From contig NZ_KK073874.1 in assembly GCF_000585375.1 (NCBI RefSeq), positions 1,302,001 to 1,366,000 of the forward strand: a DNA stretch of 64,000 nucleotides. The letters run 5' to 3'. Position numbers and translations under genes: made by a program. Shown here piece by piece: positions 16,093 through 40,912 of the stretch. The DNA comes from Cryptosporangium arvum DSM 44712 (lineage in GTDB: Bacteria; Actinomycetota; Actinomycetes; Mycobacteriales; Cryptosporangiaceae). The first letter of the stretch is position 1; each line of letters starts with the position of its first letter. The notes below the pieces were generated by a model that had not been told where the DNA came from, did not search any database, and was given only the letters and a program-made list of their open reading frames with translations.

Positions 16093-16132
16093 GCTCTTCT
16101 CACCCCCTGGCCCGAGGCGCTCAGGATATCGC

Positions 16133-16897: not shown

Positions 16898-16908
16898 GGC
16901 GCTCTCCA

Positions 16909-17868
16909 TCAGGTGTGAGTCGAGAGGTACTGCTCGGCCAGGGCGCAGCTGCCCCGGGTGTAGCCGGCCCCGAGCTGGGCGGCGATGTCCACGGTGGAGT
17001 GCGAGCCGATCCACGCGGTGAGCAGGAGGCGGCGGAACAGCACGAACGTCCAGATCTCGGCTTCGTCGTCGGCCGGGAGCGGCGTCACCGACCGGTAGCC
17101 GCGCAGCCAGGCGTCGATGACCTCGGGGATCTCCGGGAGGTGCTCGACGAAACTCAGCGCCGCGCCCAGGTCGTACAGGTACCAGCCGAACCCGCAGTCG
17201 TCGAAGTCGATGACGCTCACGCCGTCGGCGACGAGCAGGTTGGCCAGCCGCAGGTCGGCGTGGATGAGCCCGTACCGCTCCGGTCCGGTGCCGAACCGTC
17301 GCAGCCGCTCGCGCAGCGTCGCTTCCAGGCGCGCGAGAACCGCCTCCTCGGCCGGGCCGACGCCGGGCGCGGAACGCCACGCACCCCAGCGCCCCGGGCC
17401 GGCGGCCGTGCCGAACGCGGCGTCGGCGTCCCAGTGAAAGCGGACGAACCCCGGCGGACGCGTCCACGACCGGGCGTGCACGTGCATCCGCGCGGTGAGC
17501 GCGCCGAGCGGCTCGAAGTCGGCCACCAGGTCGTCCTCGCGTGGTTCGCGTCCCGGCAGGAACTCGAACAGCACGCACTCGCGCGCCGGGCCGCCGGACG
17601 GGTCGGGCACGGTCACGACCCGCGCGCCGTCGAGCGCCGGAATCACCCGCGGCGTGCGGACCCCCGCCTCGGTGCGCAGCGCGTCGAGCCACGCCAGTTC
17701 GGACGGGATCGCGCCGGGCGGGTGGTAGTCCAGCCGGTGCACCCGGAGCACCACCGGCTCGGCGTCCGGCTCGCGGACCAGGTACGTCTCGTTTTCGGAG
17801 ACGTTGAGCAACTCGATCGTCGTGTCGGGGGAGAGGCCGTAACGCGCGGCGGCGGACGACGCGATCAT
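16909..17868 (-). CDS. APH-fold small-molecule kinase
   Basis: The 319-residue protein belongs to the aminoglycoside phosphotransferase/choline-kinase fold. The catalytic loop is [13 protein letters not shown] (about residue 212), followed by the metal site [17 protein letters not shown]. The N-lobe contains [10 protein letters not shown] and VVLRVHR. Such enzymes phosphorylate hydroxyl groups of small metabolites. Here it is encoded between a class III PLP enzyme (ATGA overlap) and an SDR. This resembles hydroxylysine kinase or aminopropanol kinase, which work with class III phospho-lyases. A resistance role is less likely in this catabolic setting. Confidence 0.85.
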
Positions 17869-19181
17869 CGGGTGTCGTCCCGGGAGAGCCGCACGGCCGT
17901 CCGGGTCCGCTCCAGGATGTCCGCCGCGAGCTCCGCGGTGACCAGCAGGCCCGGTTTGTACTGCAGGACACGCGGGTCGAGCGTCGAGAAGATCGCCCAG
18001 ACGCCGCCCTGGTAGAGCCGCCGCATGACGTACTTCGCGCCCTCGGGGTGCGCGAACTCCAACCCCATGACCAGCCCGTCCTTGCGGACGCCGACCAGCC
18101 AGTCCGGGAACTCGTCCCGAATGCGGCCGAGCCCGGACGCGAACAGCTCCGACAGCGCGGCCACGTTGTCCCGGGTCGACGCCCGCAGCGTCAGGTCGAG
18201 CGTGGTGAGCGCGGCGACGCAGCCGAGTTCGGCGCCGCCGAACGTCGAGATGTGGCCGAAGCCGTCCTCGGTGAGCCAGGCGGCGGCGCGGTCGCTCGCG
18301 AGCACCGCCGTGATCGGGTACAGCCCGCCCGACAGGCCCTTGCCGGTGACCAGGATGTCGGGTTCGACCGAGTGTTTCGTGATGGCCCACAGCTCACCGG
18401 TGCGGCCGAGTCCGGTCTGCACCTCGTCGGCGATGTAGAGCGTGCCGTGGTCCTCGCAGAGCCGCTTGACCGCGGCCAGGTAGCCCGGCGCCGGCATCGG
18501 GAAGCCGTAGGTGGCCGGGATCGTCTCCATGATCACCGCGGCCACGTCGTCGCCGCGCAGTGCGTCGGCCATCGCGGCCAGGTCGTTGAACTCGACGTGC
18601 GGGAAGTCGGCGGGCTGGTCGGCGAGGAACATCCGGGAGAACCGGTCGTCGCCGGTGCCGACCGCGAGCCCGGTGTGCCCGTGGTAGGCCTTCACGATCG
18701 AGACGATCTTGCGCCGCTTGGTGGCGTGCCGGGCCGACTTGATCGCGATGTCGATCGCCTCGCCGCCGCCGCTGCCGTAGATCACCTTGGTCAGGCCGGG
18801 AGGCGCCGTGCGCACCAGCGCTTCGGCCAGCGCGGTGCGGGCGATCGACGGGAAATGATGGTTCCCGACGTCGAACCGTTCGGTGGCTTTCGTGACGGCG
18901 GCGACGACCTCGGGGTTGCGGTGGCCGAGGTTGTACGTACCGCCGTTGAGGTGGACGTCGATCAGGGTGTGGCCGTCGACGTCGTGCAGGTGGTAGCCCT
19001 CGCGCCGGTCGATGACCAGCGGGACGCCCTCGTCGGTCCAGAATCGGGTCTTGCCGGGGTTCCAGTAGGTCTCCGAGGCTTCGAGCATCGCGTTCTTCGA
19101 CGCCCACGGGAAGCCGCCGCTCGTCACCGCGGCAGCGAGCTCGGAGACACGGTCGGTGGTCTGGTCGGGCTGCACGGTCAT
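17865..19181 (-). CDS. Class III PLP-dependent aminotransferase or phospho-lyase
   Basis: This 438-residue class III enzyme resembles glutamate-1-semialdehyde aminomutase-like proteins. The PLP lysine lies in [32 protein letters not shown] binds the cofactor phosphate, and [13 protein letters not shown] carries the PLP-ring aspartate. True transaminases and phospho-lyases (ethanolamine-phosphate, phosphohydroxylysine, aminopropanol-phosphate) share this fold and cannot be separated by eye. Translational coupling to a downstream APH-fold kinase makes the phospho-lyase reading attractive. An APC permease is transcribed divergently. Confidence 0.9.
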
Positions 19182-19270: not shown

Positions 19271-19419
19271 TGCACCGAAACATGACCGTAACCGCTGAGC
19301 TATTGATCGCTGGTCAACGCGGTGCCACATTTCTTGCCAACAATCCCTTCGAGCCCGGACGCGGTGCTGCGCCTCGGCCATTTCTCCTCATTTCCTGCTG
19401 TCAGGAAGGGCGTGGGCCC

Positions 19420-20994
19420 GTGAGTACGACGAAGGACGTCTCGGCCGAATCCGAGGGACTGACACCGCACGAGGTCCATCGCCTCAAGCCGGGCACGATC
19501 GGGTTGTGGGCGGTGCTGTTCATCGCGCTGGCCAACGCCGCTCCGATCACCGCGATGACCGGAAACGTACCGATCGCAATTGGTTTCGGAAACGGCCTCG
19601 GCGCACCGGCCGGGTTCTTCTTCGCCACCGTGATCCTGACGATCTTCGCGATCGGCTACGTCACGATGGCCAAGCACATCACGACCACCGGTGCGTTCTA
19701 CGGCTTCATCTCGCACGGGCTCGGCAAGGTGTGGGGAATGGGCGCCGGCCTGATGGCGACGCTTGCCTACATCGTGTTCGAGGCGTCACTGATCGGCATC
19801 CTGGCGTCCTTCACCAAGAGCACGATCGAGACGTTCGGCGGTCCGTCGATCAGCTGGCTCGTGTACGCGCTGATCGGCATCGTGATCATCGCCGCGCTCG
19901 GCTACTTCGAGATCTCGCTCTCCGGCAAGGTGCTCGGCGTCTTCCTGGTCGCCGAGGTGATCATCCTGGCGGCGCTGGCGATCTCGATCCTGGTGCGTGG
20001 TGGCGGCCCGAGCGGCCTGGAGGCCGGCGCGATCAACCCGGTCAACGCGTTCTCCGCGGTGGCCAGCGACCCGCAGGCCGCGATCACCGGCAGTGCCGCG
20101 ATCGGCCTGTTCTTCGCGTTCTGGTCCTGGGTGGGCTTCGAGACCACCGCGGTCTACGGCGAGGAGTCGAAGGACCCGAAGAAGATCGTCCCGCGGGCGA
20201 CGATGATCGCGGTGATCGGGCTCGGCCTGTTCTACGTGTTCGTGTCCTGGATGGCGATCGCCGGCAACGGGCTCGACCAGGCGATCGCGATCTCCCGCGG
20301 CAGCACCGGCAACGCGTTCGACCTGTTCTACGGCATCACCGACCGGTTCCTGGCCGGCTGGGTGAAGGACGTGTACCTGGTTCTGGTGGTCACCGGTTCG
20401 TTCGCCTGCGCGCTGGCGTTCCACAACGCGGCCTCCCGGTACCTGTACGCGCTCGGCCGCGACGGCGTGACGAGCGGCCTGCGCCGGACGCTCGGTTCCA
20501 CGCACGGCAAGCACGGTTCGCCGCACATCGCGTCGCTCGTGCAGAGCGTGATCACCGTCGTCATCACGCTGGGCTTCTTCTTCCTGCAGAAGCCCACCGA
20601 CGCTGCTCCGGACGTCGCCTACATCCACCAGTACGGGCTGATGGCGATCATGGGCACGATGGCGCTGCTGATCGTGCAGTCGATCTGCTCGATCGCGGTG
20701 ATCTGGTACTTCCACGTGCGCAAGCAGCACCCGGAGACCGCGAGCTGGTGGCGGACGTTCCTGGCGCCGCTGATCGGGGCGGTCGGCATGCTCTACGTCG
20801 TCTACCTGCTGTTCAGCAACATCGACTTCGCCGCCGGTGCGGCCGCGGGCAGTCCGATCTTCAAGGCGACGCCGTACATCGTGATCGGCATCGGCGTCCT
20901 CGGTGCGCTCGTCGCGCTGGCGCTGAAGTACCGCAGCCCGGAACGGTACGAGCGGATCGGCGCCACCGTGATGGCCGAATCGCACGAGCGGTAG
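19420..20994 (+). CDS. APC-family amino acid/amine permease
   Basis: From GTG 19420 (AGGAAGGG nine bases upstream) the product is 524 residues with about twelve membrane segments. Examples are TIGLWAVLFIALANAAPITAM, FFFATVILTIFAIGYV, and IGLFFAFWSWVGFETTAVYGEE, the last being a conserved APC substrate-site region. It imports an amino acid, amine or amino alcohol across the cytoplasmic membrane. It is divergent from the class III PLP enzyme and followed after nine bases by an acetamidase/formamidase gene, so the transported compound is probably nitrogenous. Confidence 0.9.
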   Translation: MSTTKDVSAESEGLTPHEVHRLKPGTIGLWAVLFIALANAAPITAMTGNVPIAIGFGNGLGAPAGFFFATVILTIFAIGYVTMAKHITTTGAFYGFISHGLGKVWGMGAGLMATLAYIVFEASLIGILASFTKSTIETFGGPSISWLVYALIGIVIIAALGYFEISLSGKVLGVFLVAEVIILAALAISILVRGGGPSGLEAGAINPVNAFSAVASDPQAAITGSAAIGLFFAFWSWVGFETTAVYGEESKDPKKIVPRATMIAVIGLGLFYVFVSWMAIAGNGLDQAIAISRGSTGNAFDLFYGITDRFLAGWVKDVYLVLVVTGSFACALAFHNAASRYLYALGRDGVTSGLRRTLGSTHGKHGSPHIASLVQSVITVVITLGFFFLQKPTDAAPDVAYIHQYGLMAIMGTMALLIVQSICSIAVIWYFHVRKQHPETASWWRTFLAPLIGAVGMLYVVYLLFSNIDFAAGAAAGSPIFKATPYIVIGIGVLGALVALALKYRSPERYERIGATVMAESHER

Positions 20995-21003
20995 GGGAGA
21001 ACG

Positions 21004-22023
21004 GTGCCCAGCTTCGACTTCCAACCGGATCCCGACGTCGACCCGGCCGGGCTCGTCTACACGTTCGGCGGGGTCGCTCCGGTCGCGTCGCTGACGCCGG
21101 GCACCGTACTCACCACCTGGACACGCGACTGTTTCGCCGGGGTCGTCCGCTCGGTGGACGACCGCAGCTCCGAGCTGTGCGACCCGCGCTATCTCAATCC
21201 GCAGACCGGCCCCTTCCACATCGAGGGGGCCGAACCCGGCGACACGCTCGCCGTCCACTTCATCTCGATCGAACCCCGGGAGACCTGGGGCGTCAGCACC
21301 ACCGTGCCGTTCTTCGGTTCGCTGACCGCGACCCCGGTGACGCCGCTGCTGCACCCGGCGCTGCCGGAACGCACCTGGATCTACGACCTCGACCGGGTCG
21401 CCCGGACCGTGCGCTACCGCGCGCTCGACTCGGATTTCACCGTGGATCTCCCGCTGGACCCGATGCACGGGACGGTCGGCGTCGCGCCGGCGCTGGGGGA
21501 GGTGCGTAACTCGCTCGCGCCCGGCGACTGGGGCGGCAACATGGACACCCCGGAGATGCGGGCCGGGGTCACCTGCTACCTGCCGGTGAACGTGGAGGGT
21601 GCGCTCTTCAGCTTCGGTGACGGCCACGCCCGGCAGGGCGAAGGGGAGACGTGCGGCGTCGCGGTGGAGACCGCGATGGACACGGCGCTCGTCGTCGACG
21701 TGATCAAGGGGCATCCGTGCCGCTGGCCGCGGATCGAGAGCGACGACTTCCTGATCACGACCGGGTCCACGAAGCCGCTCGAGGACGCGTTCCGGATCGC
21801 GCACTCCGAGCTGGTCGGCTGGGTCGCCGCCGAGGCCGGCCTGTCCACGCTCGACGCGTACCAGCTGGTCTCGCAGGCCACGCTGACGCCGGTGGCGAAC
21901 GTCGTCGACACGGTCTACACGATGACCGCGAAGATGCCGAAGTCCGCGCTGCCCGGCGTGGTGGCCATGGGGGGCGTCCACGCCCGCCTCCGCGCGCTCG
22001 GTGCGGCCTGGCTCTCCCGATGA
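21004..22023 (+). CDS. Acetamidase/formamidase family protein
   Basis: The 339-residue protein matches the FmdA/AmdA family, which hydrolyses short amides to ammonia and a carboxylate. Family features include PGDTLAVHFISIEP, DPMHGTVGVAP, GDWGGNMDTPEMRAG (metal/active-site region), and GDGHARQGEGETCGVAVE, the most diagnostic stretch. It follows the permease by nine bases, which suggests it acts on the imported substrate or on a product of it. The exact amide is unknown. Confidence 0.9.
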   Translation: MPSFDFQPDPDVDPAGLVYTFGGVAPVASLTPGTVLTTWTRDCFAGVVRSVDDRSSELCDPRYLNPQTGPFHIEGAEPGDTLAVHFISIEPRETWGVSTTVPFFGSLTATPVTPLLHPALPERTWIYDLDRVARTVRYRALDSDFTVDLPLDPMHGTVGVAPALGEVRNSLAPGDWGGNMDTPEMRAGVTCYLPVNVEGALFSFGDGHARQGEGETCGVAVETAMDTALVVDVIKGHPCRWPRIESDDFLITTGSTKPLEDAFRIAHSELVGWVAAEAGLSTLDAYQLVSQATLTPVANVVDTVYTMTAKMPKSALPGVVAMGGVHARLRALGAAWLSR

Positions 22024-22454
22024 CGAACGGCCCGGATCTGGACACCGCGTTGATGCTGTGCGCCACCGCGCTGGCCACGGCCCGGGACATCGGCGCGTTC
22101 GTGTCGGTCGCGGTCGTCGACGGCGGCGGCAACCTGGTGGCGTTCGTCCGGATGGACGGCGCCGAGATCGCCGGCCCGACGCTCGCCGTCGACAAGGCCT
22201 ACACCGCGGTCGCGCACCGGGTCTCCACCGACGTGCTCGGGGTGCTCGCCGGGCCCGGCGGTCCGCTGCAGGGGCTCGCCTCGGCTGCGGGCGGCCGGTA
22301 CGTCTGCTTCGGCGGCGGCAAGCCACTGTGGATGGAGGGCCGCGTTGTCGGCGGGGTCGGTGTGAGCGGTGGGACTGTTGAGCAGGATGTGGCGTGTGTC
22401 AAGGCCGCAGCCGACAAGTGGCCCCATACCGCACCTGCGGAATCCGCACCATGA
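22020..22454 (+). CDS. GlcG/HbpS (PduO C-terminal-like) protein
   Basis: This 144-residue protein shows the DUF336 fold: an N-terminal helix, ISV-type strand AFVSVAVVDGGGNLVAFVRMDGA, DKAYTAVAHRVST, and GGKPLWMEGRVVGGVGVSGGTVEQD. The family includes GlcG, the heme-binding HbpS and the C-terminal half of the corrinoid adenosyltransferase PduO. It is coupled by ATGA to the formamidase gene and lies just upstream of a B12-dependent diol dehydratase cluster. A link to cobalamin or heme handling is therefore possible but unproven. Confidence 0.85.
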   Translation: MTNGPDLDTALMLCATALATARDIGAFVSVAVVDGGGNLVAFVRMDGAEIAGPTLAVDKAYTAVAHRVSTDVLGVLAGPGGPLQGLASAAGGRYVCFGGGKPLWMEGRVVGGVGVSGGTVEQDVACVKAAADKWPHTAPAESAP

Positions 22455-22633
22455 TCATATTGGCCGTTCGGGGGACGTTGCGTAATCGGCCCGGTGGAAC
22501 AGCGTCACCGACACGGCCGAAATCCACCCATACTTTGCGGCGCCAATTCCCCCAGGCCTCCCTAGCTCGGCAGAATCGCGTTCGTATCAGCCATGCGGGT
22601 TGCGGGGCCCGAGGAACTGGACGGGTGCTTGCC

Positions 22634-24856
22634 ATGCTCATGAATCGTGCGCGTCTTGACGCCGCGTTACCCGCATTCGAATTAGGGGATCGGATCGGAC
22701 GTGGTGGCTACGGCGTCGTCTACGCCGCACGTCATCGTCGTATCGGCTGGCAGGCCGCGGTCAAAGTACTGGCCGACGGCGACACCGACGGACCGCTGCG
22801 GGAGCGGTTCGTCTCCGAAGCCACGTCACTCGCCGAACTCGACCATCCGCACATCGTGCGGATTCATGACTACGTGGAGCACGAAGGGCTGTGCCTGCTG
22901 GTCATGGAGCGGCTCAACGGCCCGATGCTGCACCAGCGCCCCGGTCTGACCGGGGTGGAGGCCTGCGGGGCGGGCCTGGCGATCGCGGACGCGCTCGCGG
23001 CCGTGCACGCGCGCGGGATACTGCACCGGGACGTCCGCCCGGAGAACCTGCTCTACAGCTCGGACGGAACGCTCAAGCTGGTGGGCTTCGGTACGGTTTC
23101 CGATGGTGCGTCGCTGATCAGTGCCGCCTCCGGGACGCCCGCCTACACGGCGCCGGAGCGCATCCAGGGCTTCCGGCTCGGCCCGGCGACCGACGTGTAC
23201 TCGCTCGGCGTCGTCCTCTACGAGTTGTTCAGCGGACGCCTGCCGTTCGGCCGTGACCTGCCGCTCTCCGCGCTGCTGCACCACCACGTCAACGTGCCGG
23301 CGCCGTGGCTGTCCGACGTGCCCAGGCCGCTGGCCGCGGTGCTCGACCGGGCGCTGAGCAAGAGCGCGAACGACCGGCCCCGGTCGGGTCACGAATTCGC
23401 GGTCGAGCTGGGATCCGCGGCCGCCGGTGCGCTCGGCGCGGACTGGCTCGACCAGGTCGCGGTGCCGATCCGGGTCAGCGGCCGGGTCCGGGACGCCGCG
23501 CGCGGCCGGCTGGCCGACGCCGACGTCCGGCCGGCGGTGACCGCGCGGGCCGGTGTGGCGCTGCCTGCGGGCGGCTCCGCTCCCACCAGCGGTGCGCCGG
23601 TCGGTGGCGGTGGTGGCGTCGTCACCGCTCCGCCGGACCCGGCCGGTTCGTTCGGCGAGACGGAATCCGAGGTCACCCGCCGCGCCCGCCAGGCGTTCGG
23701 CGCGACCGGCCGGCACTCGACGATCACCGAGCCCGAGCACCCGAACGACGCGCCGCCGGCCGACGTGCCGCCGCCGGCCGACTTCAGCGACTTCGACGAC
23801 GGATCCGGTGACGACGAGCGTCCCCGCCGGCCCTGGTACCGGCGCGGCTGGGCGATCGGCCTGAGCGCGCTCGTCGCCCTCGGCCTCATCGGGGGGTCCG
23901 CGCTCGTCGTGATTGCACCGTGGAAGTCCGACTCCGGCGACGACGTGCGCACGATCCGGACGTCGACGCCACGCGGGATGGTCGTCGACTCGGACGGCAA
24001 CCTGTACCTGAGCGACGTCTCCAACCGGCAGGTCCGGAAAGTGAGCCCGACCGGCCGGATCAGCGTGTTCGCCGGCACCGGCCCCGAGGTCACCGCCGGT
24101 TCCGGGGGCGACGACGGACCGGCGGTGAAGGCCCAGCTGGCGTTCCCGCAGTCACTCGCGATCGGCCCCGAGCGCAGCGTCTACATCGCCGACACCGCCG
24201 AGGGCCGGGTCCGGCAGGTCACCGCGGACGGCAAGATCCGCACGGTGGTGGGCGCGAAGCCGACCGCCGAGGAGGAGGACGACGCCGCTGACGCGCAGGC
24301 CGCGCAGCTCCCGAACTTCTTCGTGATCGCGACCAGCCGCACCGGGCAGCTCTACATCGCCGAGTCCGGCAGCGGCACCCAGCGCGTCCGCAGGCTCAAC
24401 ACCACCGGCGGCCTGTCCACCGTCGTCAAGAACGCCACGAACGACGAGGGCGAGACGAACTCGGACGCCGACGCCATCCAGTCGATCCGATCGATCGCGA
24501 TCGGCGGCGACGGCCGGATCTACGTGGCCGACCGGGGGCACAAGCTGATCTGGGGCTTCGAGCCCGGCGACGACACCCCCGACGCGGTCGCGGGCGGCGG
24601 CACGCTCGCCGACTGCCCGTCGAAGATCGTCTACAACGGGCCCGACACGCTCGCGATCGGCGACGGCGGCGAGCTCTACGTCGGCTCCTACGGGCTCTGC
24701 GAGCTCAAGGACGGCGGATCGGCACGTGAACTGGTCAAAAGTCAGTACATCGACGCGGTCGCGGCGGGGCGCAACGGTGACGTTTACTACCTCTCGAAGA
24801 ACACCATCTACAAGCGGACGTCGGCCGGCGTGGTGACCGAGGTCGAAGACAGCTAG
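22634..24856 (+). CDS. Membrane Ser/Thr kinase-like protein with NHL repeats, probable pseudokinase
   Basis: From ATG 22634 (or 22640) the product is about 740 residues. Residues 15-265 form a Hanks-type kinase domain. It has the Gly loop GRGGYGVVYAA, the VAIK-type lysine (K44), and TPAYTAPE. However, the catalytic loop reads HRDVRPEN, with Arg instead of the usual Lys at 135. The metal-binding DFG is GFG, with Gly at 151 in place of Asp. Loss of that Asp usually abolishes phosphotransfer. A disordered linker, one membrane segment (about 404-426) and extracellular NHL-type repeats (DGNLYLSDVSNRQVRKVSPTG) follow. Only nine bases separate it from the diol dehydratase gene. An active paralogue is encoded at 29427. 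Confidence 0.88.
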   Translation: MLMNRARLDAALPAFELGDRIGRGGYGVVYAARHRRIGWQAAVKVLADGDTDGPLRERFVSEATSLAELDHPHIVRIHDYVEHEGLCLLVMERLNGPMLHQRPGLTGVEACGAGLAIADALAAVHARGILHRDVRPENLLYSSDGTLKLVGFGTVSDGASLISAASGTPAYTAPERIQGFRLGPATDVYSLGVVLYELFSGRLPFGRDLPLSALLHHHVNVPAPWLSDVPRPLAAVLDRALSKSANDRPRSGHEFAVELGSAAAGALGADWLDQVAVPIRVSGRVRDAARGRLADADVRPAVTARAGVALPAGGSAPTSGAPVGGGGGVVTAPPDPAGSFGETESEVTRRARQAFGATGRHSTITEPEHPNDAPPADVPPPADFSDFDDGSGDDERPRRPWYRRGWAIGLSALVALGLIGGSALVVIAPWKSDSGDDVRTIRTSTPRGMVVDSDGNLYLSDVSNRQVRKVSPTGRISVFAGTGPEVTAGSGGDDGPAVKAQLAFPQSLAIGPERSVYIADTAEGRVRQVTADGKIRTVVGAKPTAEEEDDAADAQAAQLPNFFVIATSRTGQLYIAESGSGTQRVRRLNTTGGLSTVVKNATNDEGETNSDADAIQSIRSIAIGGDGRIYVADRGHKLIWGFEPGDDTPDAVAGGGTLADCPSKIVYNGPDTLAIGDGGELYVGSYGLCELKDGGSARELVKSQYIDAVAAGRNGDVYYLSKNTIYKRTSAGVVTEVEDS

Positions 24857-24865
24857 GGGCTCCGC

Positions 24866-27091
24866 ATGGCGGTAGGGCGGATTCGGCGTCTCGACGCCCA
24901 GCCGGTGAACCTCGACGGGTTCGCCGTGGAGAACGCCGATCTCGGCCTGATCGCACTGCGCTCACCGCACGATCCGGCGCCGTCGCTGCGGCTGGAGGAC
25001 GGACGGGTCGTCGAGCTGGACGGCGTGGCCGAGGACGACTTCGACACGGTCGACGCGTTCATCGCCGCACACGGGCTGGACCTGTCGGTGGCGCCCGAGG
25101 CGATGGCCTTGCCCGACGTCGAACTGGCGCGATTGTTCGTGGATTTCGCCGTTCCCCGGGCCGAGGTGGTCCGCCTGGTGAGCGGCTGCACGCCGGCCAA
25201 GCTGGCCCGGGTGCTCGCGCTGCTGCGCCCGGCCGAGCTCATGATGGCGATGACGAAGCTGCGGGCCCGCCGCACGCCGAGCAACCAGGGGCACGTCACG
25301 AACCGGGCCGACGACCCGCTGCTGCTCGCCGCCGACGCCGCCACCGCGGCCGCCTACGGATTCCGCGAGCTGGAGACCACGGTGCCGGTGCTCGCCGACG
25401 CGCCGTCGAACGCGGTGGCGGTCAGCATCGGTGCCGCGGTGGGGGCGGCCGGGGTGCTCGTGCAGTGCTCGGTCGAAGAGGCGCTGGAACTGGAGCTCGG
25501 TCTGCGCGGGTTCGTCTCGTACGCCGAGACCGTCTCGCTCTACGGCACCGAGGGCGTGTTCACCGACGGGGACGACACGCCCTGGTCGAAGGCGTTCCTG
25601 ACCTCGGGGTACGCATCCCGGGGCATCAAGATGCGGGTGTCGTCGGGAGCCGGCGCCGAAGTGCTGATGGGCGGCGCCGAACGTCGTTCGATGCTCTACC
25701 TGGAGTCGCGCTGCGTGGCGCTGGCCCGGGCGATCGGTGCCCAGGGCGTGCAGAACGGCGGCATCGACGGGGCGTCGGTGGCCGCCGCCGTGCCCGCCGG
25801 GGTGCGTGAGCTGATGGCCGAGAACGTCATGGTGATGGCCCGCAACCTGGAGGCCTGCACCGGCAACGACGCGCTGATGAGCGAGTCCGACGTCCGCCGC
25901 ACCTCACGGACGCTGCCGATCCTGCTGGCCGGCTCGGACTTCGTCTGCAGCGGCTTCGGCACGATCGAGCGCTACGACAACATGTTCGGCCCGAGCAACT
26001 GGAACGCCGAGGACCTCGACGACTGGCTCGCGATGCAGCGGGACTGGGGTGTCGACGGGGGCCTTCGAACCGCGTCGCCGGACTCGCTGGAGCCGCTCCG
26101 GCGCCGCGCCGCCGAGGCGGTGCAGGCGGTGTACCGGTGGTTCGGACTGGCGGACCTCTCCGACGAGTCGATCGACGCCGCGGTGGACGCCGTCGGGTCG
26201 AAGGACCTGGTCGGGGACGACGCGCTGGCCGTTCTGAACGCCGCCCGCACGATCCGGGAATCCGGGCTCTCGATGGTGGACGTCGTGACGGCGCTGGCCG
26301 AGTCCGGGTTCGAGGAGGAGGCGTCGCGGATCCTGTCGATGCTCAAGGCGCGGGTGGTCGGTGACTATCTGCAGACGGCCGCCATCTTCACTCCGTCGAT
26401 GGACGTCTTGTCGCTGGTGACCGACCCGAACGACTACGCGGGGCCGGACACCGGGTACGTGCCGACGCCCTCCCGGCAGGCGGAGATCGACGACATCCGG
26501 CAGGCGCGCTCGGTGTCGGACCTACGGGCCGAGCAGGCCTCCTGGGCGTCCTCGTCGATTTCCTCGACCGGTCCGGCGGTGGTCGGGTCGGATCCGCGCG
26601 AGGTGGTGGTGGGCGTCTCGCCGGCGACCGGGAGGGAGATCTGGCGCACGCTGTCCGGCCTCCTGGTCGTGGACGTGCTCCAGGAGATCCTCGCCGGCCT
26701 CGAGGAGGAGGGCGCGCTCGGGCGGGTGGTGCGGATCAACGACACGCTCGACCTGGGCATGATCGGGTTGTCCGCGGCCCGGCTGGCCGGGTCGGGGGTC
26801 TCGGTCGGTCTGCAGGCCAAGGGCACGGCGTTGATCCACCGCCGGGACCTGCCGCCGCTGGCCAACCTGGAGTTGTACTCGGTGGCCCCGGTGCTCTCCC
26901 GCGCCGACTACCGGCTGCTCGGGGTGAACGCGGCCCGGCACGCGCGAGGAGCCGTTCCGGAGCCGGCGAAGAACCCGTACACCGACGAGGCGATCGAGGC
27001 GAGGTATCACACCGCGGTCGTGTCGCTGATCGCGGTGGAACGCGGTTGCTGCGCACCGGTCGGCCCGGACGAGTTGAAGGTGGCGGAATGA
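24866..27091 (+). CDS. pduC: B12-dependent diol/glycerol dehydratase, fused large and medium subunits
   Basis: Residues 1-550 match the diol dehydratase large subunit (HVTNRADDPLLLAADAATAAAYGFRE; VSSGAGAEVLMGGAERRSMLYLESRC; QNGGIDGASVAAAVP; ACTGNDALMSESDVRRTSR). Residues 585 to the end match the medium subunit (VVGVSPATGREIWRTLSGLLVVDVLQEILAGLEEEG; RINDTLDLGMIGLSAARLAGSG). The enzyme uses adenosylcobalamin to convert 1,2-propanediol or glycerol to an aldehyde. In enterobacteria these are separate PduC and PduD, so this is a natural fusion. The small subunit follows with ATGA overlap. No microcompartment shell genes are seen nearby. Confidence 0.95.
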   Translation: MAVGRIRRLDAQPVNLDGFAVENADLGLIALRSPHDPAPSLRLEDGRVVELDGVAEDDFDTVDAFIAAHGLDLSVAPEAMALPDVELARLFVDFAVPRAEVVRLVSGCTPAKLARVLALLRPAELMMAMTKLRARRTPSNQGHVTNRADDPLLLAADAATAAAYGFRELETTVPVLADAPSNAVAVSIGAAVGAAGVLVQCSVEEALELELGLRGFVSYAETVSLYGTEGVFTDGDDTPWSKAFLTSGYASRGIKMRVSSGAGAEVLMGGAERRSMLYLESRCVALARAIGAQGVQNGGIDGASVAAAVPAGVRELMAENVMVMARNLEACTGNDALMSESDVRRTSRTLPILLAGSDFVCSGFGTIERYDNMFGPSNWNAEDLDDWLAMQRDWGVDGGLRTASPDSLEPLRRRAAEAVQAVYRWFGLADLSDESIDAAVDAVGSKDLVGDDALAVLNAARTIRESGLSMVDVVTALAESGFEEEASRILSMLKARVVGDYLQTAAIFTPSMDVLSLVTDPNDYAGPDTGYVPTPSRQAEIDDIRQARSVSDLRAEQASWASSSISSTGPAVVGSDPREVVVGVSPATGREIWRTLSGLLVVDVLQEILAGLEEEGALGRVVRINDTLDLGMIGLSAARLAGSGVSVGLQAKGTALIHRRDLPPLANLELYSVAPVLSRADYRLLGVNAARHARGAVPEPAKNPYTDEAIEARYHTAVVSLIAVERGCCAPVGPDELKVAE

Positions 27092-27441
27092 AGGCGTTCT
27101 CCGGCCGGCCCCTGGAGTCGGTGACCTTGGAGGCGGTACGGGCCGGCGAGGTCGGCCCCGACGATCTGCGGATCCACCCGGAGACGCTCGAACACCAGGC
27201 GCAGGTGGCGCAGGCGCACGGCAACCCGCAGCTGGCCGCGAACTTCCGCCGCGCCGCCGAGCTCACCGCGATCGACGACGCCGACGTCATGCGCGTCTAC
27301 GAGGCCCTGCGTCCGCGCCGCAGCACGTTCGTCGAGCTGGAGGAGATCGCCGAGTGGCTCTCGGCCCGGGGCGCGACGATGAACGCCGCGCTGGTCCGCG
27401 AGGCCGCCCAGGTCTACCGACGCCGCGGCCTGTGCCGTTGA
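27088..27441 (+). CDS. pduE: Diol dehydratase small subunit
   Basis: The 117-residue protein matches PduE: GRPLESVTLEAVRAGEVGPDDLRIHPETLEHQAQVAQAHGNPQLAANFRRAAELTAIDD, then VYEALRPRRSTFVELEEIAEWL. It completes the dehydratase with the fused large/medium chain. Its start overlaps the previous stop (ATGA) and its end overlaps the reactivase gene, so all three are co-translated. Confidence 0.95.
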   Translation: MKAFSGRPLESVTLEAVRAGEVGPDDLRIHPETLEHQAQVAQAHGNPQLAANFRRAAELTAIDDADVMRVYEALRPRRSTFVELEEIAEWLSARGATMNAALVREAAQVYRRRGLCR

Positions 27442-29102
27442 GGCTGGTCGCGGGGGTCGACATCGGGAACTCGACCACCGAAGTGGTGCTGGCCGACGTC
27501 GCCACCGGGGAGCCGGTGGCCTGGGACCGGACGATGACCAGGGGCGCGAAGGGCACGGTTTCCTCGGTGCGGGGCGCAGCCGCGCTGGTGCGACGACTGG
27601 TGCGGCGGGTTCCCGACGGCGAGCTGGTGTCGGCGGCGGTGGCGCCACTGCGCCCGGTCCGGACGTCGACCACCACGGTGCCGGAACCCCCGGCGGACAC
27701 CGGCCGGTTCGCGGTGCTCGCGGCCGGGGTGGCGTCCCCGGGCGGGGTGGGTTCGGGTGTGGGACGGCCGGTGTCGATCGAGGAGATCGAGGTCCCCGGT
27801 GGGGCGCCGGTGGTGGCGTTGGTGTCCGCCGGGTACCGCGAGGCGGCTCCGCGTCTGAACGCGCTGCTCGCGGAGGGCGCGCCGATCGTCGCCGTGCTGC
27901 TGGCCGCGGACGAGGCGCGCCTGGTGGCGAACCGGTTGGAGCATCCGGTTCCGGTGGTGGACGGCGTGGACCTGGCCGCGGCGGCGGGCGCGACGCTGGT
28001 GGCGGTCGAGGTGGTGACGGCCGGGCGTCCGCTGCGGAAGCTGACCGATCCGCTGTTTCTGGCGAGCGGGTTCGGCGTGGGAGCGGAGGAGAACGACGAC
28101 GTGCGGCGGCTCGCCCGGCAGCTGGCCGATGTCTCCAGCGCGGCGGTGGCACTGGGTGCGGTGCCGGTGGAGCCGGCGGGTCCGGCCGGAGGACGGATCT
28201 GGACGCGCCGGCATCCGGGCGGCGGTGAGGGGCTCGTCTGGGCGGAGGCCGCTCGTCGGTTGGGGGAGGCTGAGCCGGGGGCGTTCGCGGCGTACGCGGT
28301 GGACGGTGGTGAACGCGTCGCGGTGGCCGACCTGGCGGTCGTCGACGTGGGGGCGCTGGCCAAGTCGCTGCTGGTACGGATCGGCGCGGGTGGCGGCGGG
28401 TACGCGCTCGCGGCGCTGGACGCCGCAGCCGGTCCGGTGCCGGCCGACGCACTGCTCACCGAGGCGCTCGGCGTTCCGGTGGTGAGCGCGTCGAGCGAGG
28501 CCGCCGCCGCCCGCTCGGGCGCGCTCACGACCCCCGGAGCGCCGGCCGACGCCGTCGTCGTGGACATCGGCGGTGGCACCGTGGACGTGATCGGCCCCGC
28601 CCACGAGCGGGTGCTCGCGGGCGGCGGAGATCTGCTGACCGCCGCGGTGGCGTTGGGGCTCGACGTGACCCGCGGCGCGGCCGAGTGGGCCAAGCGCGGA
28701 CCGGCGGTACGCGTGGAGACCCCGCAGCTCGCGACCCAGGAGGACGGGGACAAGACGTTCCTGGAAGCGCCGCAGCCGGCGGGCACGGTCGGGTGGCTGG
28801 CGGCGCCGGGGCCGGCGGGCCTGCTGCCGATCACCGTCCGGATCGGACCGGCGGAGTGGCGCACGTTCCGGCTCGCGCTGAAACAGGCGGTGCTGGGAAC
28901 CGCGGTGCGCCGAGGTCTGGTCGGGGCCGGCACGGTCCTGGTGGTGGGCGGCCCGGCCGGCGACGACGAGGTGCTGCGGGTCGTGGACGCGGTGTTGCCG
29001 CCGGGCGCGGGGTTGGGGCGCGGAAACGTCGCGGGCGTGCTGGGACACCGGTACGCGGTGGCCTGGGGCCTCGCCCTGGCCGCCGGAACGACCCAGGGCT
29101 AG
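27432..29102 (+). CDS. pduG: Diol dehydratase reactivating factor, large subunit
   Basis: This ATP-dependent chaperone-like enzyme exchanges damaged cobalamin in diol dehydratase. The 556-residue protein shows the actin/Hsp70-like phosphate motif VAGVDIGNSTTEVVLAD and the second nucleotide region VVDIGGGTVDVIGP, plus PLRPVRTSTTTVPEPP and LTDPLFLASGFGVGAEENDDVRRLARQ, all typical of DdrA/PduG. GTG 27432 is preferred; TTG 27438 overlaps the pduE stop exactly. No small reactivase subunit (DdrB/PduH) is recognised next to it. Confidence 0.93.
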   Translation: MPLRLVAGVDIGNSTTEVVLADVATGEPVAWDRTMTRGAKGTVSSVRGAAALVRRLVRRVPDGELVSAAVAPLRPVRTSTTTVPEPPADTGRFAVLAAGVASPGGVGSGVGRPVSIEEIEVPGGAPVVALVSAGYREAAPRLNALLAEGAPIVAVLLAADEARLVANRLEHPVPVVDGVDLAAAAGATLVAVEVVTAGRPLRKLTDPLFLASGFGVGAEENDDVRRLARQLADVSSAAVALGAVPVEPAGPAGGRIWTRRHPGGGEGLVWAEAARRLGEAEPGAFAAYAVDGGERVAVADLAVVDVGALAKSLLVRIGAGGGGYALAALDAAAGPVPADALLTEALGVPVVSASSEAAAARSGALTTPGAPADAVVVDIGGGTVDVIGPAHERVLAGGGDLLTAAVALGLDVTRGAAEWAKRGPAVRVETPQLATQEDGDKTFLEAPQPAGTVGWLAAPGPAGLLPITVRIGPAEWRTFRLALKQAVLGTAVRRGLVGAGTVLVVGGPAGDDEVLRVVDAVLPPGAGLGRGNVAGVLGHRYAVAWGLALAAGTTQG

Positions 29103-29426: not shown

Positions 29427-31607
29427 ATGATCGTCGATCGCGCGCGCATCGAGGAGGCACTGCCCGGCTACGAGCTGGGCGCCGAACTCGGTCGTGGCGC
29501 GTTCGGCCTGGTGATCGCGGCGCGTCACCGGCAGCTGGATCGGGACGTCGCGATCAAGGTGCTCGGGCGGCCCGGTGACCCGGTCGAGGAGAGCCGGTTC
29601 CGGGCCGAGGCGCGCGTGTTGTCCGAGCTGGACCATCCGCACGTCGTCCGGTTGCACGACTACGTGGAGCACAGCGGGCTGTTCCTGCTGGTGATGGAGC
29701 GGTTGAGCGGCGGCGGCCTGGCCCTCGACCGGGTCCGGCCGGAGTACGCGTGTGCGCTGGGGCTCGCGGTCGCCGACGCGCTCGAGGCCGCCCACCGCCG
29801 CCGGGTGCTGCATCGCGACGTCAAGCCCGACAACCTGCTGTTCGCCGGCGACGGCACGGTGAAGGTGACCGACTTCGGCATCGCGAAGATCATCGAGGGG
29901 ACGACGGCGGCGTCGAGTTCGTTCGTCGGGTCGCCGGTGTACATGGCGCCCGAGCAGGCGGCGCTCGGGCGGCTCGGGCCGGGCACGGACCTGTACTCGC
30001 TGAGCGTCGTGCTGTACCGGCTGCTGACCGGCCGGCCGGTGTTCGCGGTCGACCTGCCGCCGCCCGCGATGCTGCTCGCGCACCTGAGCAGACGCCCCCC
30101 GCCGATGCCGGACGTCGCCGACCGGGTGGCGGGGGTGGTGCTGCGCGGGCTGGCCAAGGACATCGACGACCGGCAGCCCACCGCGCGCTCGTACGCGCTC
30201 GATCTGGCGTCGGCGGCGGCGGAGTCGTTCGGCGGGGACTGGCTCGCGCGGGCAGGGCTCCCGGTCCGGGTGGACGAAGAGGTGCGTGACGCGGCGCGGG
30301 CGACCAAGGCGGTCCGGTCGTTCGAGACCACGGTCGGTCGGCGGCTGCCGGACTGGCCGTGGGGGTTGCCGCCCACCCGCCTCGACGAGGTCCTCCCCAG
30401 TGCACCGTCGACCGGGAAGAGGCCCGCCGCCACCCGTCCGCCCCCGGGCCGGGCCCCGGACCCCGGTCCGGACTCCGTCACCGAGGAACTGGCCGCGCGG
30501 GCCCCGGCCGCACCGACCTCCGGCGCCCTCGTCATCACGCCGGCCCCGGCCTGGCTCCTGCGCCGTCCGACCCGACGCGCCCGCCCCCTGGCCATCGCCA
30601 CCGCACTGCTCGGCGCCGTCCTCGCCGCGATCGTCGTCGGCCTCGGCGTCAGCACCTTCGACACCGGTCCGACCGTCGTGCCCGGCCCGGCCGGCGTCGT
30701 CGCGTCCGGACGCACCCTCTACGTCTCCGATCCGGCCCGCAGCCAGGTCCGCCGCTTCGACTCGGGCCGGGTCAGCGGCTCGGGCGGCACCGTCGTGGCC
30801 GGCAGCGGGCGCGACGGTTTCTCCGGCGACGGCGGCCGGGCCGTCGACGCCGAGCTCAGCGAACCCGGGCCTCTCGCCGTCGACGGCAACGGCAACCTCT
30901 ACATCGCCGACATCGGCAACCGCCGGATCCGCAAGGTCACAGTGGACGGCCGGATCAGCACGGTGGTGGGCGGCGGAACACGCGCTCTGAACAGCCGGCT
31001 GCACGCGAGCCAGGTCCGGCTCACCCAACCGTTCTCGATCGCGGTGAGCTCCCAGGGTGTCCTCTGGGTCGCCGAACAGCAGCGCAACCGGATCTGCCGG
31101 GTGCAGCCCGACGGCACGGTCGAGGCCTACGTCGGCACCGGCCAGGCCGGTTTCGGCGGCGACGGCCTCTACGCCAGCTGGGCACTGCTCAAGGCGCCGA
31201 CCGCGGTCGCGCTCAACCCGTCCGGCGACCGTCTCTACGTCGCCGACCAGGGCAATCGCCGGATCCGGGAGGTCCGGGTGGGGTCCGGCTTCATCCGGAC
31301 GTACGCGGGCGACGGCAGCGATGGTCCGTTCCGGAACAACGTCCAGGCCACGGCCGGCGGACTCTCGAGCGTCTACACGCTCGCCGCCACCGCCGACGGC
31401 ACCGTGTTCCTCGGTGGCACCGACGCCCGCCTGGTCGATCCGTCGGGCTTCGTCCGCCCGGTGGCGGCGCTGCCGACGATCTCGTTGGCCGTGACCCCGA
31501 ACGGCACGGTCTATCTCGTCGCCGAGCAGAAGAACACGTCCGGCGACCGCGTCCACCGTCTCTACCGACGGAGCCCGTCCGGTGAGCTCACTCGTCTACC
31601 GTGGTGA
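29427..31607 (+). CDS. Membrane Ser/Thr protein kinase with extracellular NHL repeats
   Basis: The start ATG 29427 gives MIVDRARIEEALPGYELG, matching the start of the paralogue at 22634. The kinase domain is complete: GRGAFGLVIAA, K44 in VAIKVLG, HRDVKPDN at 129-136, DFG at 149-151, and SPVYMAPEQAALG. About 100 residues of Pro/Ala-rich linker and one membrane segment (LAIATALLGAVLAAIVVGLG) follow. The extracellular part has NHL-type propeller repeats (NLYIADIGNRRIRKVTVDGR; RLYVADQGNRRIREVRVG). It should sense an outside ligand or surface and phosphorylate cytoplasmic targets. Length is 726 residues. Confidence 0.92.
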   Translation: MIVDRARIEEALPGYELGAELGRGAFGLVIAARHRQLDRDVAIKVLGRPGDPVEESRFRAEARVLSELDHPHVVRLHDYVEHSGLFLLVMERLSGGGLALDRVRPEYACALGLAVADALEAAHRRRVLHRDVKPDNLLFAGDGTVKVTDFGIAKIIEGTTAASSSFVGSPVYMAPEQAALGRLGPGTDLYSLSVVLYRLLTGRPVFAVDLPPPAMLLAHLSRRPPPMPDVADRVAGVVLRGLAKDIDDRQPTARSYALDLASAAAESFGGDWLARAGLPVRVDEEVRDAARATKAVRSFETTVGRRLPDWPWGLPPTRLDEVLPSAPSTGKRPAATRPPPGRAPDPGPDSVTEELAARAPAAPTSGALVITPAPAWLLRRPTRRARPLAIATALLGAVLAAIVVGLGVSTFDTGPTVVPGPAGVVASGRTLYVSDPARSQVRRFDSGRVSGSGGTVVAGSGRDGFSGDGGRAVDAELSEPGPLAVDGNGNLYIADIGNRRIRKVTVDGRISTVVGGGTRALNSRLHASQVRLTQPFSIAVSSQGVLWVAEQQRNRICRVQPDGTVEAYVGTGQAGFGGDGLYASWALLKAPTAVALNPSGDRLYVADQGNRRIREVRVGSGFIRTYAGDGSDGPFRNNVQATAGGLSSVYTLAATADGTVFLGGTDARLVDPSGFVRPVAALPTISLAVTPNGTVYLVAEQKNTSGDRVHRLYRRSPSGELTRLPW

Positions 31608-32142
31608 GGTGAGCGTCGTCATCTCCGTCAGCAAGGACTCCGAGCACCACTTCAGCAAGCGGCCCGTCGACGAGATCGTGCTGCTCGCCGGTCTGGGCGT
31701 CGAGGGTGACGCGCACGCGGGCGTCACCGTCCAGCACCGGTCCCGGGTCGCGGTCGACCCGACCCAGCCGAACCTGCGGCAGGTCCACCTGATCCAGAGC
31801 GAGCTGATCGACGAGCTCGCCGACTTCGACCTCGCTCCCGGCGGGCTCGGCGAGAACGTGCTGACCCGCGGGATCGACCTGCTCGCGCTGCCGACCGGCG
31901 CCGTGCTGCGGCTGGGCGCGGACGCGACGATCGAGATCACCGGGTTGCGCAACCCGTGCCGCCAGATCGACGGGTACCGCTCCGGGTTGCTCAAGCAGGT
32001 GCTCACCAAGGACGAGCGCGGTTCGATCGTCCGTAGGGCCGGAGTGATGGGCGTGGTCACGGCCGGGGGAGTGGTTCGCCCCGGAGACGCCGTCGCGGTG
32101 ACCATGCCGCCGCCTCCGCATCAGGCGTTGGAGCGCGTCTGA
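31582..32142 (+). CDS. MOSC-domain protein
   Basis: The protein matches the MOSC (molybdenum cofactor sulfurase C-terminal) superfamily: HHFSKRPVDEIVLLAGLGVEGDAHAGVTVQHRS, PNLRQVHLIQSELIDEL, GLGENVLTRGIDLLALP, and the conserved Cys in GLRNPCRQID. Such proteins transfer or bind sulfur or molybdenum-cofactor-related ligands; the substrate is unknown. GTG 31582 has GGAG eight bases upstream and overlaps the kinase gene end; GTG 31609 would also give a full domain. The gene end overlaps the convergent MFS gene by 22 bases. Confidence 0.88.
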   Translation: MSSLVYRGEVSVVISVSKDSEHHFSKRPVDEIVLLAGLGVEGDAHAGVTVQHRSRVAVDPTQPNLRQVHLIQSELIDELADFDLAPGGLGENVLTRGIDLLALPTGAVLRLGADATIEITGLRNPCRQIDGYRSGLLKQVLTKDERGSIVRRAGVMGVVTAGGVVRPGDAVAVTMPPPPHQALERV

Positions 32143-40035: not shown

Positions 40036-40060
40036 GCGGCGACTCCCGGCTCGTTCGTGT

Positions 40061-40387
40061 TCATGCTTCGGGGCCGCGTTCGTCGAGGAGGCCGGCGAAT
40101 TCCGGGCGTAGGCCGGGGATGTCGCGGGTGCCGACGATCGCGACCAGGTCGACCTCACGGACGACGCCCGGCTCGAACCGCACCGCGGTGCCCGACGGGA
40201 TCGCGAGCCGGTAACCCCAGGCCGCGCGTCGGTCGAAGCTCAGGCCGGTGTTCACGGCCGCGAAGTGGTAGTGGCTACCGACCTGGATCGGACGGTCGGC
40301 GGTGTTCGTGACCTCGAGGCTGCGCCGTTCGCGGCCTTCGAGCAGCGGCACCGCGTCGGCGGCGACGATGATCTCGCCGGGCGTCAC
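40061..40387 (-). CDS. ureB: Urease beta subunit
   Basis: The 108-residue protein matches Ure[46 protein letters not shown] and the LDFDR-like segment [26 protein letters not shown]. It is a structural subunit. The GTG start overlaps the end of ureA by four bases. Confidence 0.96.
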
Positions 40388-40686: not shown

Positions 40687-40912
40687 AGCGTCGTCCTCAT
40701 CCTCGGGCGCCAGTCCGCCCGGCAGCGTAACCGCGCCGTGTTACCAGCATGTTTTGCCCCGCCGACACGTGTTCACCGGCGTATTGAAAGCTCATTGGCA
40801 CGTGTGTCAGAGTGTCGCTATGCGAGCGCAGCCGGTGGATCCAGATAGCCTCCCTCTCGACGATGCGGTGCGCGGCGTTACGACCGCGCGAGGTCGGGTC
40901 GAGGAGGCTGTC

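What the first reader, a model, noticed from the sequence alone, without database searches (positions are those of the whole stretch)
22634..24856. Probable pseudokinase with NHL repeats, 9 bases before a B12 diol dehydratase gene
Seen in the sequence: the DFG Asp is Gly (residue 151) and the catalytic-loop Lys is Arg (HRDVRPEN), while the VAIK Lys and HRD are kept. Known: the DFG Asp binds the ATP magnesium and its loss usually ends phosphotransfer. The membrane/NHL architecture would make it a surface receptor that signals without catalysis. Its tight placement before pduCDE-pduG links sensing to this dehydratase, which I have not seen described.
Basis: partly seen in the sequence, partly recalled or inferred. 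Interest (0 to 1): 0.72.

Follow-up and report, generated by a model that had tools for sequence, protein, structure and literature searches.

The report
Degenerate receptor kinase in dehydratase operon
A soil actinomycete and its three sequenced sister species carry, just before a vitamin-B12 diol-dehydratase gene, a membrane receptor whose kinase part has lost one metal-binding residue but is otherwise well preserved, so it probably works as a sensor or partner of a nearby active kinase; no experiment yet shows whether it is truly inactive or what it controls.

Summary
The gene at 22634-24856 (KIN1) encodes a kinase domain, one transmembrane helix and an NHL propeller, with GFG for DFG (Gly151) and HRDVRPEN, and ends 9 bp before a fused pduC-pduD gene. 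It is no sequencing error: 4 of 4 genus genomes keep GFG and the Arg, while 39 of 39 other KIN1-matching kinase places of this genome have Asp there. The kinase domain is under purifying selection (dN/dS 0.144), tighter than the neighbouring active paralogue KIN2 (0.250; 498 of 500 bootstraps). KIN1 sits inside an operon that elsewhere often runs HbpS-pduCD directly; 0 of 48 distinct loci outside the genus with upstream sequence have it.

"Signals without catalysis" is not established: the residue set (G-loop, Lys, HRD kept; GFG) is that of CASK, reported active without metal (PMC2639636, PMC4718504). The link to the dehydratase is positional only; the window is largely collinear across the genus. 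Best reading: a nucleotide-binding receptor pseudokinase that modulates KIN2 and is co-expressed with the dehydratase; complex, ligand and target are inferred. New variant of a known kind.

The parts
22634..24856 (+). KIN1: NHL-type receptor kinase with GFG in place of DFG
22634..23443 (+). KIN1 kinase domain (residues 1-270)
   Evidence: Pfam Pkinase 16-249; StkP, PknA, PknB chains E 1.8e-37 to 1.5e-31
22697..22714 (+). glycine-rich loop GRGGYG (22-27), intact
22763..22765 (+). beta-3 Lys44 (AAVK), intact
23024..23047 (+). catalytic loop HRDVRPEN (131-138): Asp133 and Asn138 kept, Lys135 is Arg
23084..23092 (+). GFG (151-153), the degenerate DFG motif
23861..23917 (+). transmembrane segment (residues 410-428)
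   Evidence: hydropathy scan
23948..24853 (+). NHL beta-propeller domain, probably extracellular
   Evidence: Pfam NHL and TEN_NHL; teneurin-like chains and PknD sensor 1RWI 3.2e-9; side of the membrane inferred
22455..22633 (+). 179-bp non-coding gap HbpS-KIN1, same length in 4 of 4 genus genomes, 65% invariant
22560..22586 (+). 27-bp block identical in the four species; a 26-base query from it occurs once in the genome (up to 3 mismatches); candidate promoter or regulator site
24866..27091 (+). pduC-pduD fusion (B12 diol/glycerol dehydratase large + medium subunits)
27088..27441 (+). pduE, dehydratase small subunit (start chosen by me)
27354..29102 (+). PduG-like diol dehydratase reactivase (start uncertain, about 27354-27435)
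   Evidence: Pfam DDR and DDR_swiveling above cut-off; NCBIfam reactive_PduG below its cut-off
29427..31607 (+). KIN2: paralogous NHL receptor kinase with intact DFG
31582..32142 (+). MOSC-domain protein overlapping the end of KIN2
21972..22454 (+). HbpS-like (PF03928) protein (start uncertain); its relative lies directly upstream of pduCD in many other loci
21004..22023 (+). FmdA/AmdA-family amidase
19300..20994 (+). amino-acid permease family transporter (start uncertain)

Best explanation
KIN1 is a functional, lineage-specific receptor pseudokinase. Its NHL propeller faces outward and senses an unknown ligand. Its cytoplasmic kinase fold still holds a nucleotide, but without the DFG Asp it does little or no normal Mg-dependent phosphotransfer. 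It acts as an allosteric partner, most likely of the active NHL kinase KIN2 encoded 4.6 kb downstream, which would then phosphorylate targets in or around the diol-dehydratase pathway. It is co-expressed with pduCD-pduE-pduG because it was inserted, with its own conserved 179-bp upstream region, between HbpS and pduCD of an older actinobacterial operon. SHOWN by sequence: domain order, GFG and HRDxRPEN in 4 of 4 species, retained pocket residues, purifying selection, absence of the insert in the examined loci outside the genus, tight gap to pduCD. INFERRED: nucleotide binding, low activity, outward propeller (by analogy with PknD), pairing with KIN2, ligand, phosphorylation targets, co-transcription, direction of the insertion event.
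For: GFG and HRD[VI]RPEN in 4 of 4 genus orthologues, while the 4 KIN2 orthologues keep DFG. Of 55 columns at least 95% conserved in 63 active relatives, KIN1 keeps 42 in all four copies, including G22, G24, G27, V29, A42, K44, E62, H131, D133, N138 and APE. It loses 6 in all four (G97P, A124V, K135R, F141Y, D151G, Q176R); 7 are mixed. Four active control clades of four lose 2, 0, 0 and 0. Kinase-domain dN/dS is 0.144 (0.105-0.193) against KIN2's 0.250 (0.194-0.325); KIN2 is higher in 498 of 500 bootstraps, and for dN alone in 478 of 500. Tree: KIN1 is one clade (100/100) with a long stem (0.77) and tips of 0.045-0.14, as expected for a change of function followed by constraint. Of 42 pduCD loci fetched outside the genus, 38 have at least 1 kb upstream and none of these has a kinase between its upstream gene and pduCD; 25 of 42 have the HbpS stop within about 50 bp of pduCD. 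The same holds for 12 loci from the order, two of which repeat earlier ones. The one held genome of another genus in the family (G004) has neither a KIN1 match at 1e-60 nor a pduCD match at 1e-100. Gap to pduCD is 9 bp here and 8, 11 and 14 bp in the others if the in-frame ATG in the printed sequences is taken. Upstream gap is 179 bp in 4 of 4. An NHL receptor kinase beside pathway genes has a precedent: Mbk/PknD lies in the pst operon (PMC1262709, passages).
Against: Nothing shows nucleotide binding, inactivity or a KIN1-KIN2 complex. CASK with the same motif set is active. Gene order over the window is largely conserved in the genus, so KIN1-pdu-KIN2 linkage is background synteny there. The data neither show nor reject that KIN1 and KIN2 are sisters (p-AU 0.353). 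The AF2 model is too poor to judge the pocket (pLDDT 51.8). Charge on the two sides of the TM segment does not settle topology (5 versus 4 R/K). No sigma-70-like promoter and no fold better than shuffles was found in the 179-bp gap. Only 4 species are available for the selection test.
Confidence: 0.4

Rival explanations
1. KIN1 is an unconventional active kinase, CASK-like: it binds ATP weakly without Mg2+ and still phosphorylates a dedicated substrate, possibly KIN2 or a pathway protein.
For: The CASK motif set GKGPFS/FAVK/HRD/GFG is reported active and metal-independent, even metal-inhibited (passages of PMC4718504 and PMC2639636). Both papers note that an intact G-loop and beta-3 Lys go with activity. 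KIN1 keeps both, plus Glu62, Asp133, Asn138 and the APE motif.
Against: A three-residue deletion after GFG, K135R and G97P, present in all four orthologues, suggest reshaping of the cleft. Loss of DFG Asp usually abolishes activity (general knowledge).
Confidence: 0.25
2. KIN1 is a constrained receptor or scaffold but has no functional tie to the diol dehydratase; it lies there by an insertion fixed in one genus.
For: The window is largely collinear in the genus. None of 20 examined Frankia-like loci with related kinases shows pdu genes within the 7.7-19 kb fetched (lengths). 0 of 48 distinct pduCD loci outside the genus with upstream sequence has a KIN1-like insert.
Against: It interrupts a tight operon on the same strand and leaves only 8-14 bp to pduCD. 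A second NHL kinase lies on the other side of pduG.
Confidence: 0.2
3. KIN1 no longer binds nucleotide and serves only as a membrane anchor or scaffold for other proteins through a kinase-shaped surface, like the MviN pseudokinase domain.
For: The MviN pseudokinase domain does not bind ATP or Mg and takes part in recruiting an inhibitory protein (passages of PMC12599244). KIN1 also shows changes fixed in all four copies at A124V and Q176R.
Against: The canonical nucleotide-contact residues examined, except the DFG Asp, are kept by 4 of 4 orthologues, unlike MviN, which has lost the three motifs (Table 1 of PMC12599244).
Confidence: 0.12
4. Isolated sequence error or decaying pseudogene.
For: None found.
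Against: GFG in 4 of 4 species; dN/dS 0.144 in the kinase domain; no stops inside the orthologue matches.
Confidence: 0.01

Closest known systems
Mycobacterium tuberculosis PknD/Mbk-type NHL receptor kinase
   Same: Kinase - TM - NHL propeller; NHL part matches the PknD sensor 1RWI at 3.2e-9; kinase gene placed beside a transport operon (pst for Mbk, PMC1262709 passages).
   Different: KIN1 lacks the DFG Asp and sits inside a diol dehydratase operon; a second, DFG-bearing NHL kinase lies on the other side.
CASK (GFG, Mg2+-independent kinase)
   Same: Loss of the DFG Asp to Gly with intact G-loop, beta-3 Lys and HRD (Table 1 of PMC2639636).
   Different: No MAGUK domains, bacterial membrane receptor; KIN1 keeps the catalytic-loop Asn138, which CASK replaces (recalled, not from a call); activity untested.
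DLHK bacterial pseudokinases (e.g. P. aeruginosa Q9I0B5, AVLT / HRDLRPAS / GFG)
   Same: GFG in that example, and an Arg in the catalytic loop, which the review calls a family-specific constraint (R231); HRD kept (PMC12599244).
   Different: DLHK lacks the beta-3 Lys and TM segments, is mainly proteobacterial, and is linked to helicase/DNA2 domains.
CP1 bacterial pseudokinases
   Same: Some members have a single degraded motif and may still bind ATP (PMC12599244).
   Different: Cyanobacteria and proteobacteria, no TM segment, linked to a COG3899 domain; KIN1 has kinase-TM-NHL.
ActPs1-3, GLW, DYD bacterial pseudokinase families
   Same: Degenerate bacterial Ser/Thr kinase folds, ActPs1-3 and DYD found in actinobacteria, many membrane-bound.
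   Different: ActPs1-3 and GLW are described as divergent in all three motifs, DYD as having Arg for the beta-3 Lys and no C-helix Glu; KIN1 keeps Lys44, Glu62 and HRD.
MviN pseudokinase domain
   Same: Actinobacterial degenerate kinase fold in a membrane protein.
   Different: MviN has lost the three motifs and ATP binding (PMC12599244 passages).

Membership tests
Pseudokinase (bioinformatic definition) | Loss of at least one of beta-3 Lys, HRD Asp, DFG Asp | tested here: met
   Gly151 in 4 of 4 orthologues
Pseudokinase (bioinformatic definition) | No demonstrated catalytic activity | not testable with these tools
   No assay possible; CASK shows that GFG can be active
Hanks-type bacterial Ser/Thr kinase | Pkinase fold family by profile | tested here: met
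   PF00069 143.9 bits, cut-off 31.7; StkP, PknA, PknB chains
Hanks-type bacterial Ser/Thr kinase | Complete catalytic set including DFG Asp | tested here: not met
   D151G, K135R
PknD-like NHL receptor kinase | N-terminal kinase, one TM segment, C-terminal NHL propeller | tested here: met
PknD-like NHL receptor kinase | Kinase inside, propeller outside | tested here: inconclusive
   5 versus 4 R/K in the 20 residues on either side of the TM segment
CASK-type Mg2+-independent kinase | GFG with intact G-loop, beta-3 Lys and HRD | tested here: met
   against Table 1 of PMC2639636
CASK-type Mg2+-independent kinase | CaM-kinase plus MAGUK domain architecture | tested here: not met
   Kinase-TM-NHL only: not a CASK, at most works like one
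CASK-type Mg2+-independent kinase | Metal-independent phosphotransfer | not testable with these tools
   needs purified protein
DLHK pseudokinases | Beta-3 Lys lost and no TM segment | tested here: not met
   Lys44 present, TM 410-428
CP1 pseudokinases | No TM segment, linked COG3899 domain | tested here: not met
   TM 410-428; Pfam shows only kinase and NHL-type domains; definition
ActPs1-3 and GLW pseudokinases | Divergence in all three catalytic motifs | tested here: not met
   Lys44 and HRD kept in 4 of 4; definition
DYD pseudokinases | Arg for beta-3 Lys and no C-helix Glu | tested here: not met
   Lys44 and Glu62 kept in 4 of 4; definition
B12-dependent diol/glycerol dehydratase operon | Large, medium and small subunits plus reactivase | tested here: met
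   PF02286, PF02288, PF02287, PF08841/PF18427

The most novel reading that the evidence does not exclude
A bacterial receptor pair in which a GFG pseudokinase (KIN1) and a catalytically complete kinase (KIN2), both with NHL propellers, form a hetero-complex that gates a B12 diol dehydratase. It would be a bacterial counterpart of pseudokinase-kinase receptor pairs, encoded on both sides of the enzyme that it controls.
Probability: 0.17. Interest if true: 0.75.

Novelty: new variant of a known kind. Interest (0 to 1): 0.45.

Why it matters
The 2025 review of bacterial pseudokinases (PMC12599244; abstract, passages of Table 1 and sections 5, 9, 10, 12, 13 and 14 seen) describes seven families and says that bacterial pseudokinases remain largely unexplored by experiment. 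Apart from some cytosolic CP1 members with a single degraded motif, the families as described there have a changed ATP-binding motif. KIN1 is a conserved membrane receptor with a lesion confined mainly to the metal site, in a culturable genus not known as a pathogen (recalled), next to an enzyme system with simple growth phenotypes and beside a DFG-bearing paralogue that serves as an internal control. It offers a tractable test of whether a GFG kinase in bacteria is dead, metal-independent or allosteric.

Tried and rejected
Sequencing error or decay: rejected. Upstream start at the ATG overlapping the HbpS stop (22451, in frame, also present in the other three species): rejected, because the 179 bp show no codon periodicity (21/21/20 variable columns). 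Cobalamin riboswitch or other Rfam RNA controlling the operon: none at gathering threshold near it; the only window hit is at 39581. The RNA fold of the gap is no better than shuffles (z 0.04). KIN1 as descendant of one member of the adjacent kinase pairs seen in a Frankia-like family: not supported. Those pairs form their own clades, the rows examined keep the DFG Asp, and 0 of 20 loci shows pdu genes. KIN1+KIN2 as one clade is neither shown nor rejected. Conserved linkage in the genus as evidence of function: dropped after the window proved largely collinear (G001 and G003 over nearly the whole window with gaps, G002 over the first 49 kb, where its contig ends). AF2 of the kinase domain with a two-row alignment: pLDDT 51.8, not used further; the second job and fold searches were not run. 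A first synteny script gave noisy output from low-complexity matches and was repeated with filtering. One search failed on a format error and was repeated; one search timed out and was repeated.

Rows dropped before counts: L024 (second piece of the same protein as L023); domains under 230 residues in the first tree (second kinases of L042 and L045) and under 240 in the second (the split kinase of L149); L008 and L009 (long branches) from the second tree. Loci L112-L139 were checked for DFG but not added to the tree; own-genome kinases L010-L020 and L092-L111 were in the DFG census but not in the tree. L191 and L192 are the same contigs as L071 and L082, so the 54 pduCD loci outside the genus are 52 distinct, 48 of them with at least 1 kb upstream. 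A marginal 30-residue kinase-profile hit in L078 (E 0.00078) was not counted as a kinase. A correction made on checking: I first wrote that no described bacterial pseudokinase family has a single-motif lesion; the CP1 section says that some members do.
Full report
1. The observation. The ORF 22634-24856 (+) encodes 740 residues. Pfam finds a protein kinase domain (8e-42), NHL repeats (4.3e-16) and the teneurin-type NHL domain (1.2e-15). One hydrophobic segment lies at residues 410-428. In solved structures the kinase part is closest to StkP, PknA and PknB (1.8e-37 to 1.5e-31), and the propeller matches teneurin-like proteins and, at 3.2e-9, the sensor domain of PknD, 1RWI. The start codon of the next gene follows 9 bp after the stop; that gene is a fusion of the large and medium dehydratase subunits, followed by the small subunit and a PduG-like reactivase. 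A paralogue with intact DFG, KIN2, lies at 29427-31607.

2. It is not an error. The genome is one 9.2-Mb contig. Its three held sister species have orthologues: two at 70% identity over the full length, the third in two pieces at 81% (residues 1-326) and 63%. The 4 of 4 read GFG and HRD[VI]RPEN, and the 4 of 4 KIN2 orthologues read DFG and HRD[VI]KPDN. In this genome 40 kinase places that match KIN1 were examined (the 42 places less two that are NHL stretches of KIN2). KIN1 alone has no Asp at the DFG position; the other 39 have it. In the order, 9 loci outside the genus (13 of 200 genomes matched, four of them the genus) have Asp. In the class, 26 of 296 genomes matched: this genome and 25 of one Frankia-like family, f32; the 28 new loci fetched have Asp. 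These searches scored only the best 3 to 5 candidates per genome, so GFG kinases of other types could be missed.

3. What changed and what was kept. Among 63 active relatives, 55 columns are at least 95% conserved. KIN1 keeps 42 in all four copies, loses 6 in all four (G97P, A124V, K135R, F141Y, D151G, Q176R) and is mixed at 7. Four active control clades of four sequences lose 2, 0, 0 and 0. There is also a three-residue deletion just after GFG. The nucleotide contacts examined other than the DFG Asp are kept: G22, G24, G27, V29, A42, K44, E62, D133, N138. The pattern is one lesion in the metal site with a few fixed neighbours, not general decay.

4. Selection. Mean pairwise dN/dS (Nei-Gojobori, six pairs) for the kinase domain is 0.144 for KIN1 and 0.250 for KIN2; KIN2 exceeds KIN1 in 498 of 500 codon bootstraps, and in 478 of 500 for dN alone. 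The propellers with the TM segment are looser (0.434 and 0.370) and the dehydratase tighter (0.119). On the tree KIN1 is one clade (100/100) with stem 0.77 and tips 0.045-0.14; KIN2 has stem 0.51 and tips 0.087-0.20. A rapid change on the stem followed by constraint fits a new function better than loss of function. With four species this is suggestive, not strong.

5. The operon. Outside the genus, 42 pduCD loci were fetched from named genomes. A common order is permease, FmdA-type amidase, HbpS-like protein, pduCD, pduE, pduG, with members missing in many loci; in 25 of 42 the HbpS stop lies within about 50 bp of the pduCD start. 38 of the 42 have at least 1 kb upstream and 27 at least 5 kb downstream; none has a kinase directly upstream on the same strand. 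Two have a kinase on the other strand nearby (L057, L079), with Asp in the motif. Twelve loci from the order, two of them repeats, have no kinase hit. The one other genus of the family that is held (G004) matches neither KIN1 nor pduCD at the thresholds used. So KIN1, with a 179-bp upstream region, was probably inserted between HbpS and pduCD in the line leading to this genus, and KIN2 was placed after pduG. The gap KIN1-pduCD is 9 bp here and 8, 11 and 14 bp in the relatives; a GGAG stands before the start in the three relatives, AGGGG here. The 179-bp gap has the same length in the four species, shows no codon periodicity, is 65% invariant and holds a 27-bp block identical in all four; a 26-base query from it occurs once in the genome. 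It is a candidate promoter or operator, though no sigma-70-like site, Rfam family or fold better than shuffles was found. Against a strong reading of linkage, the window is largely collinear in the three relatives, so a conserved neighbourhood within the genus is what most genes here would show.

6. Mechanism. CASK has the same set (GKGPFS, FAVK, HRD, GFG) and is active; VRK3, with GFG but a ruined G-loop and no HRD Asp, is dead (Table 1 of PMC2639636, passages seen). PMC4718504 (passages) describes CASK as metal-independent and inhibited by metal, with millimolar ATP affinity. KIN1 falls on the CASK side of that line by G-loop and Lys, so binding of nucleotide is likely and some activity is possible. 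I consider most likely a nucleotide-binding receptor pseudokinase that works through KIN2. The precedent for placing an NHL receptor kinase with a pathway is Mbk/PknD in the pst operon (PMC1262709, passages). Pairing with KIN2 is inference from proximity and shared architecture only.

7. Comparison with known kinds. PMC12599244 (abstract, passages and sections 5, 9, 10, 12, 13, 14 seen) describes seven bacterial pseudokinase families. Five are classed as divergent in all three motifs, although some CP1 members have a single degraded motif; CP1 lacks TM segments and is linked to a COG3899 domain. DYD has Arg for the beta-3 Lys. DLHK has no beta-3 Lys and no TM segment, but shares with KIN1 an Arg in the catalytic loop and, in the P. 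aeruginosa example, GFG. By the tested features KIN1 belongs to none of them. By architecture it is a PknD-like receptor. I call it a new variant of a known kind. Listings searched for the combination with a diol dehydratase or an NHL pseudokinase; none of the rows seen described it. These cover open-licence PMC papers only, and one search used loose terms (7,170 papers, 12 seen). The CASK and MviN primary papers were not held.

8. Organism. Size and kinship suggest Cryptosporangium; this is recalled knowledge and not from a call.

Noticed in passing
window 41485-44616 (-): A 1043-aa protein with a NACHT N-terminal helical domain (NNH7, 7e-59), possibly a NACHT-type defence protein, beside an Uma2-type putative endonuclease (40649-41488).
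   Followed up: no
window 39581-39872 (+): Rfam 5_ureB_sRNA match (108 bits) in an actinomycete. It may reflect conserved urease coding sequence on the other strand (ORF 38314-40158, -) rather than an sRNA; the + strand ORF there has no Pfam hit and the - strand ORF was not checked.
   Followed up: partly
L103, L110, L104, L106 (own genome, G000:C1 near 6434596, 9176618, 5357274, 4572542): Other kinase-like proteins of this genome have lost different residues: HGGITPTN (L103) and HGNLTPST (L110) lack the HRD Asp; L104 and L106 have Thr or Asn for the loop Lys.
   Followed up: no
L140-L159 (family f32, Frankia-like genomes): Related NHL-type kinases often occur as two adjacent genes that fall in two sister clades, with the DFG Asp kept and without pdu genes nearby: a recurrent tandem kinase pair of unknown role.
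   Followed up: partly
L050-L091, e.g. L071, L082: A recurrent actinobacterial operon permease - FmdA-type amidase - HbpS - fused pduCD - pduE - pduG, in the window also with a class III aminotransferase, an SDR and a GntR/UTRA regulator (15337-19181, -). It suggests a substrate other than plain 1,2-propanediol, perhaps an amino alcohol.
   Followed up: no
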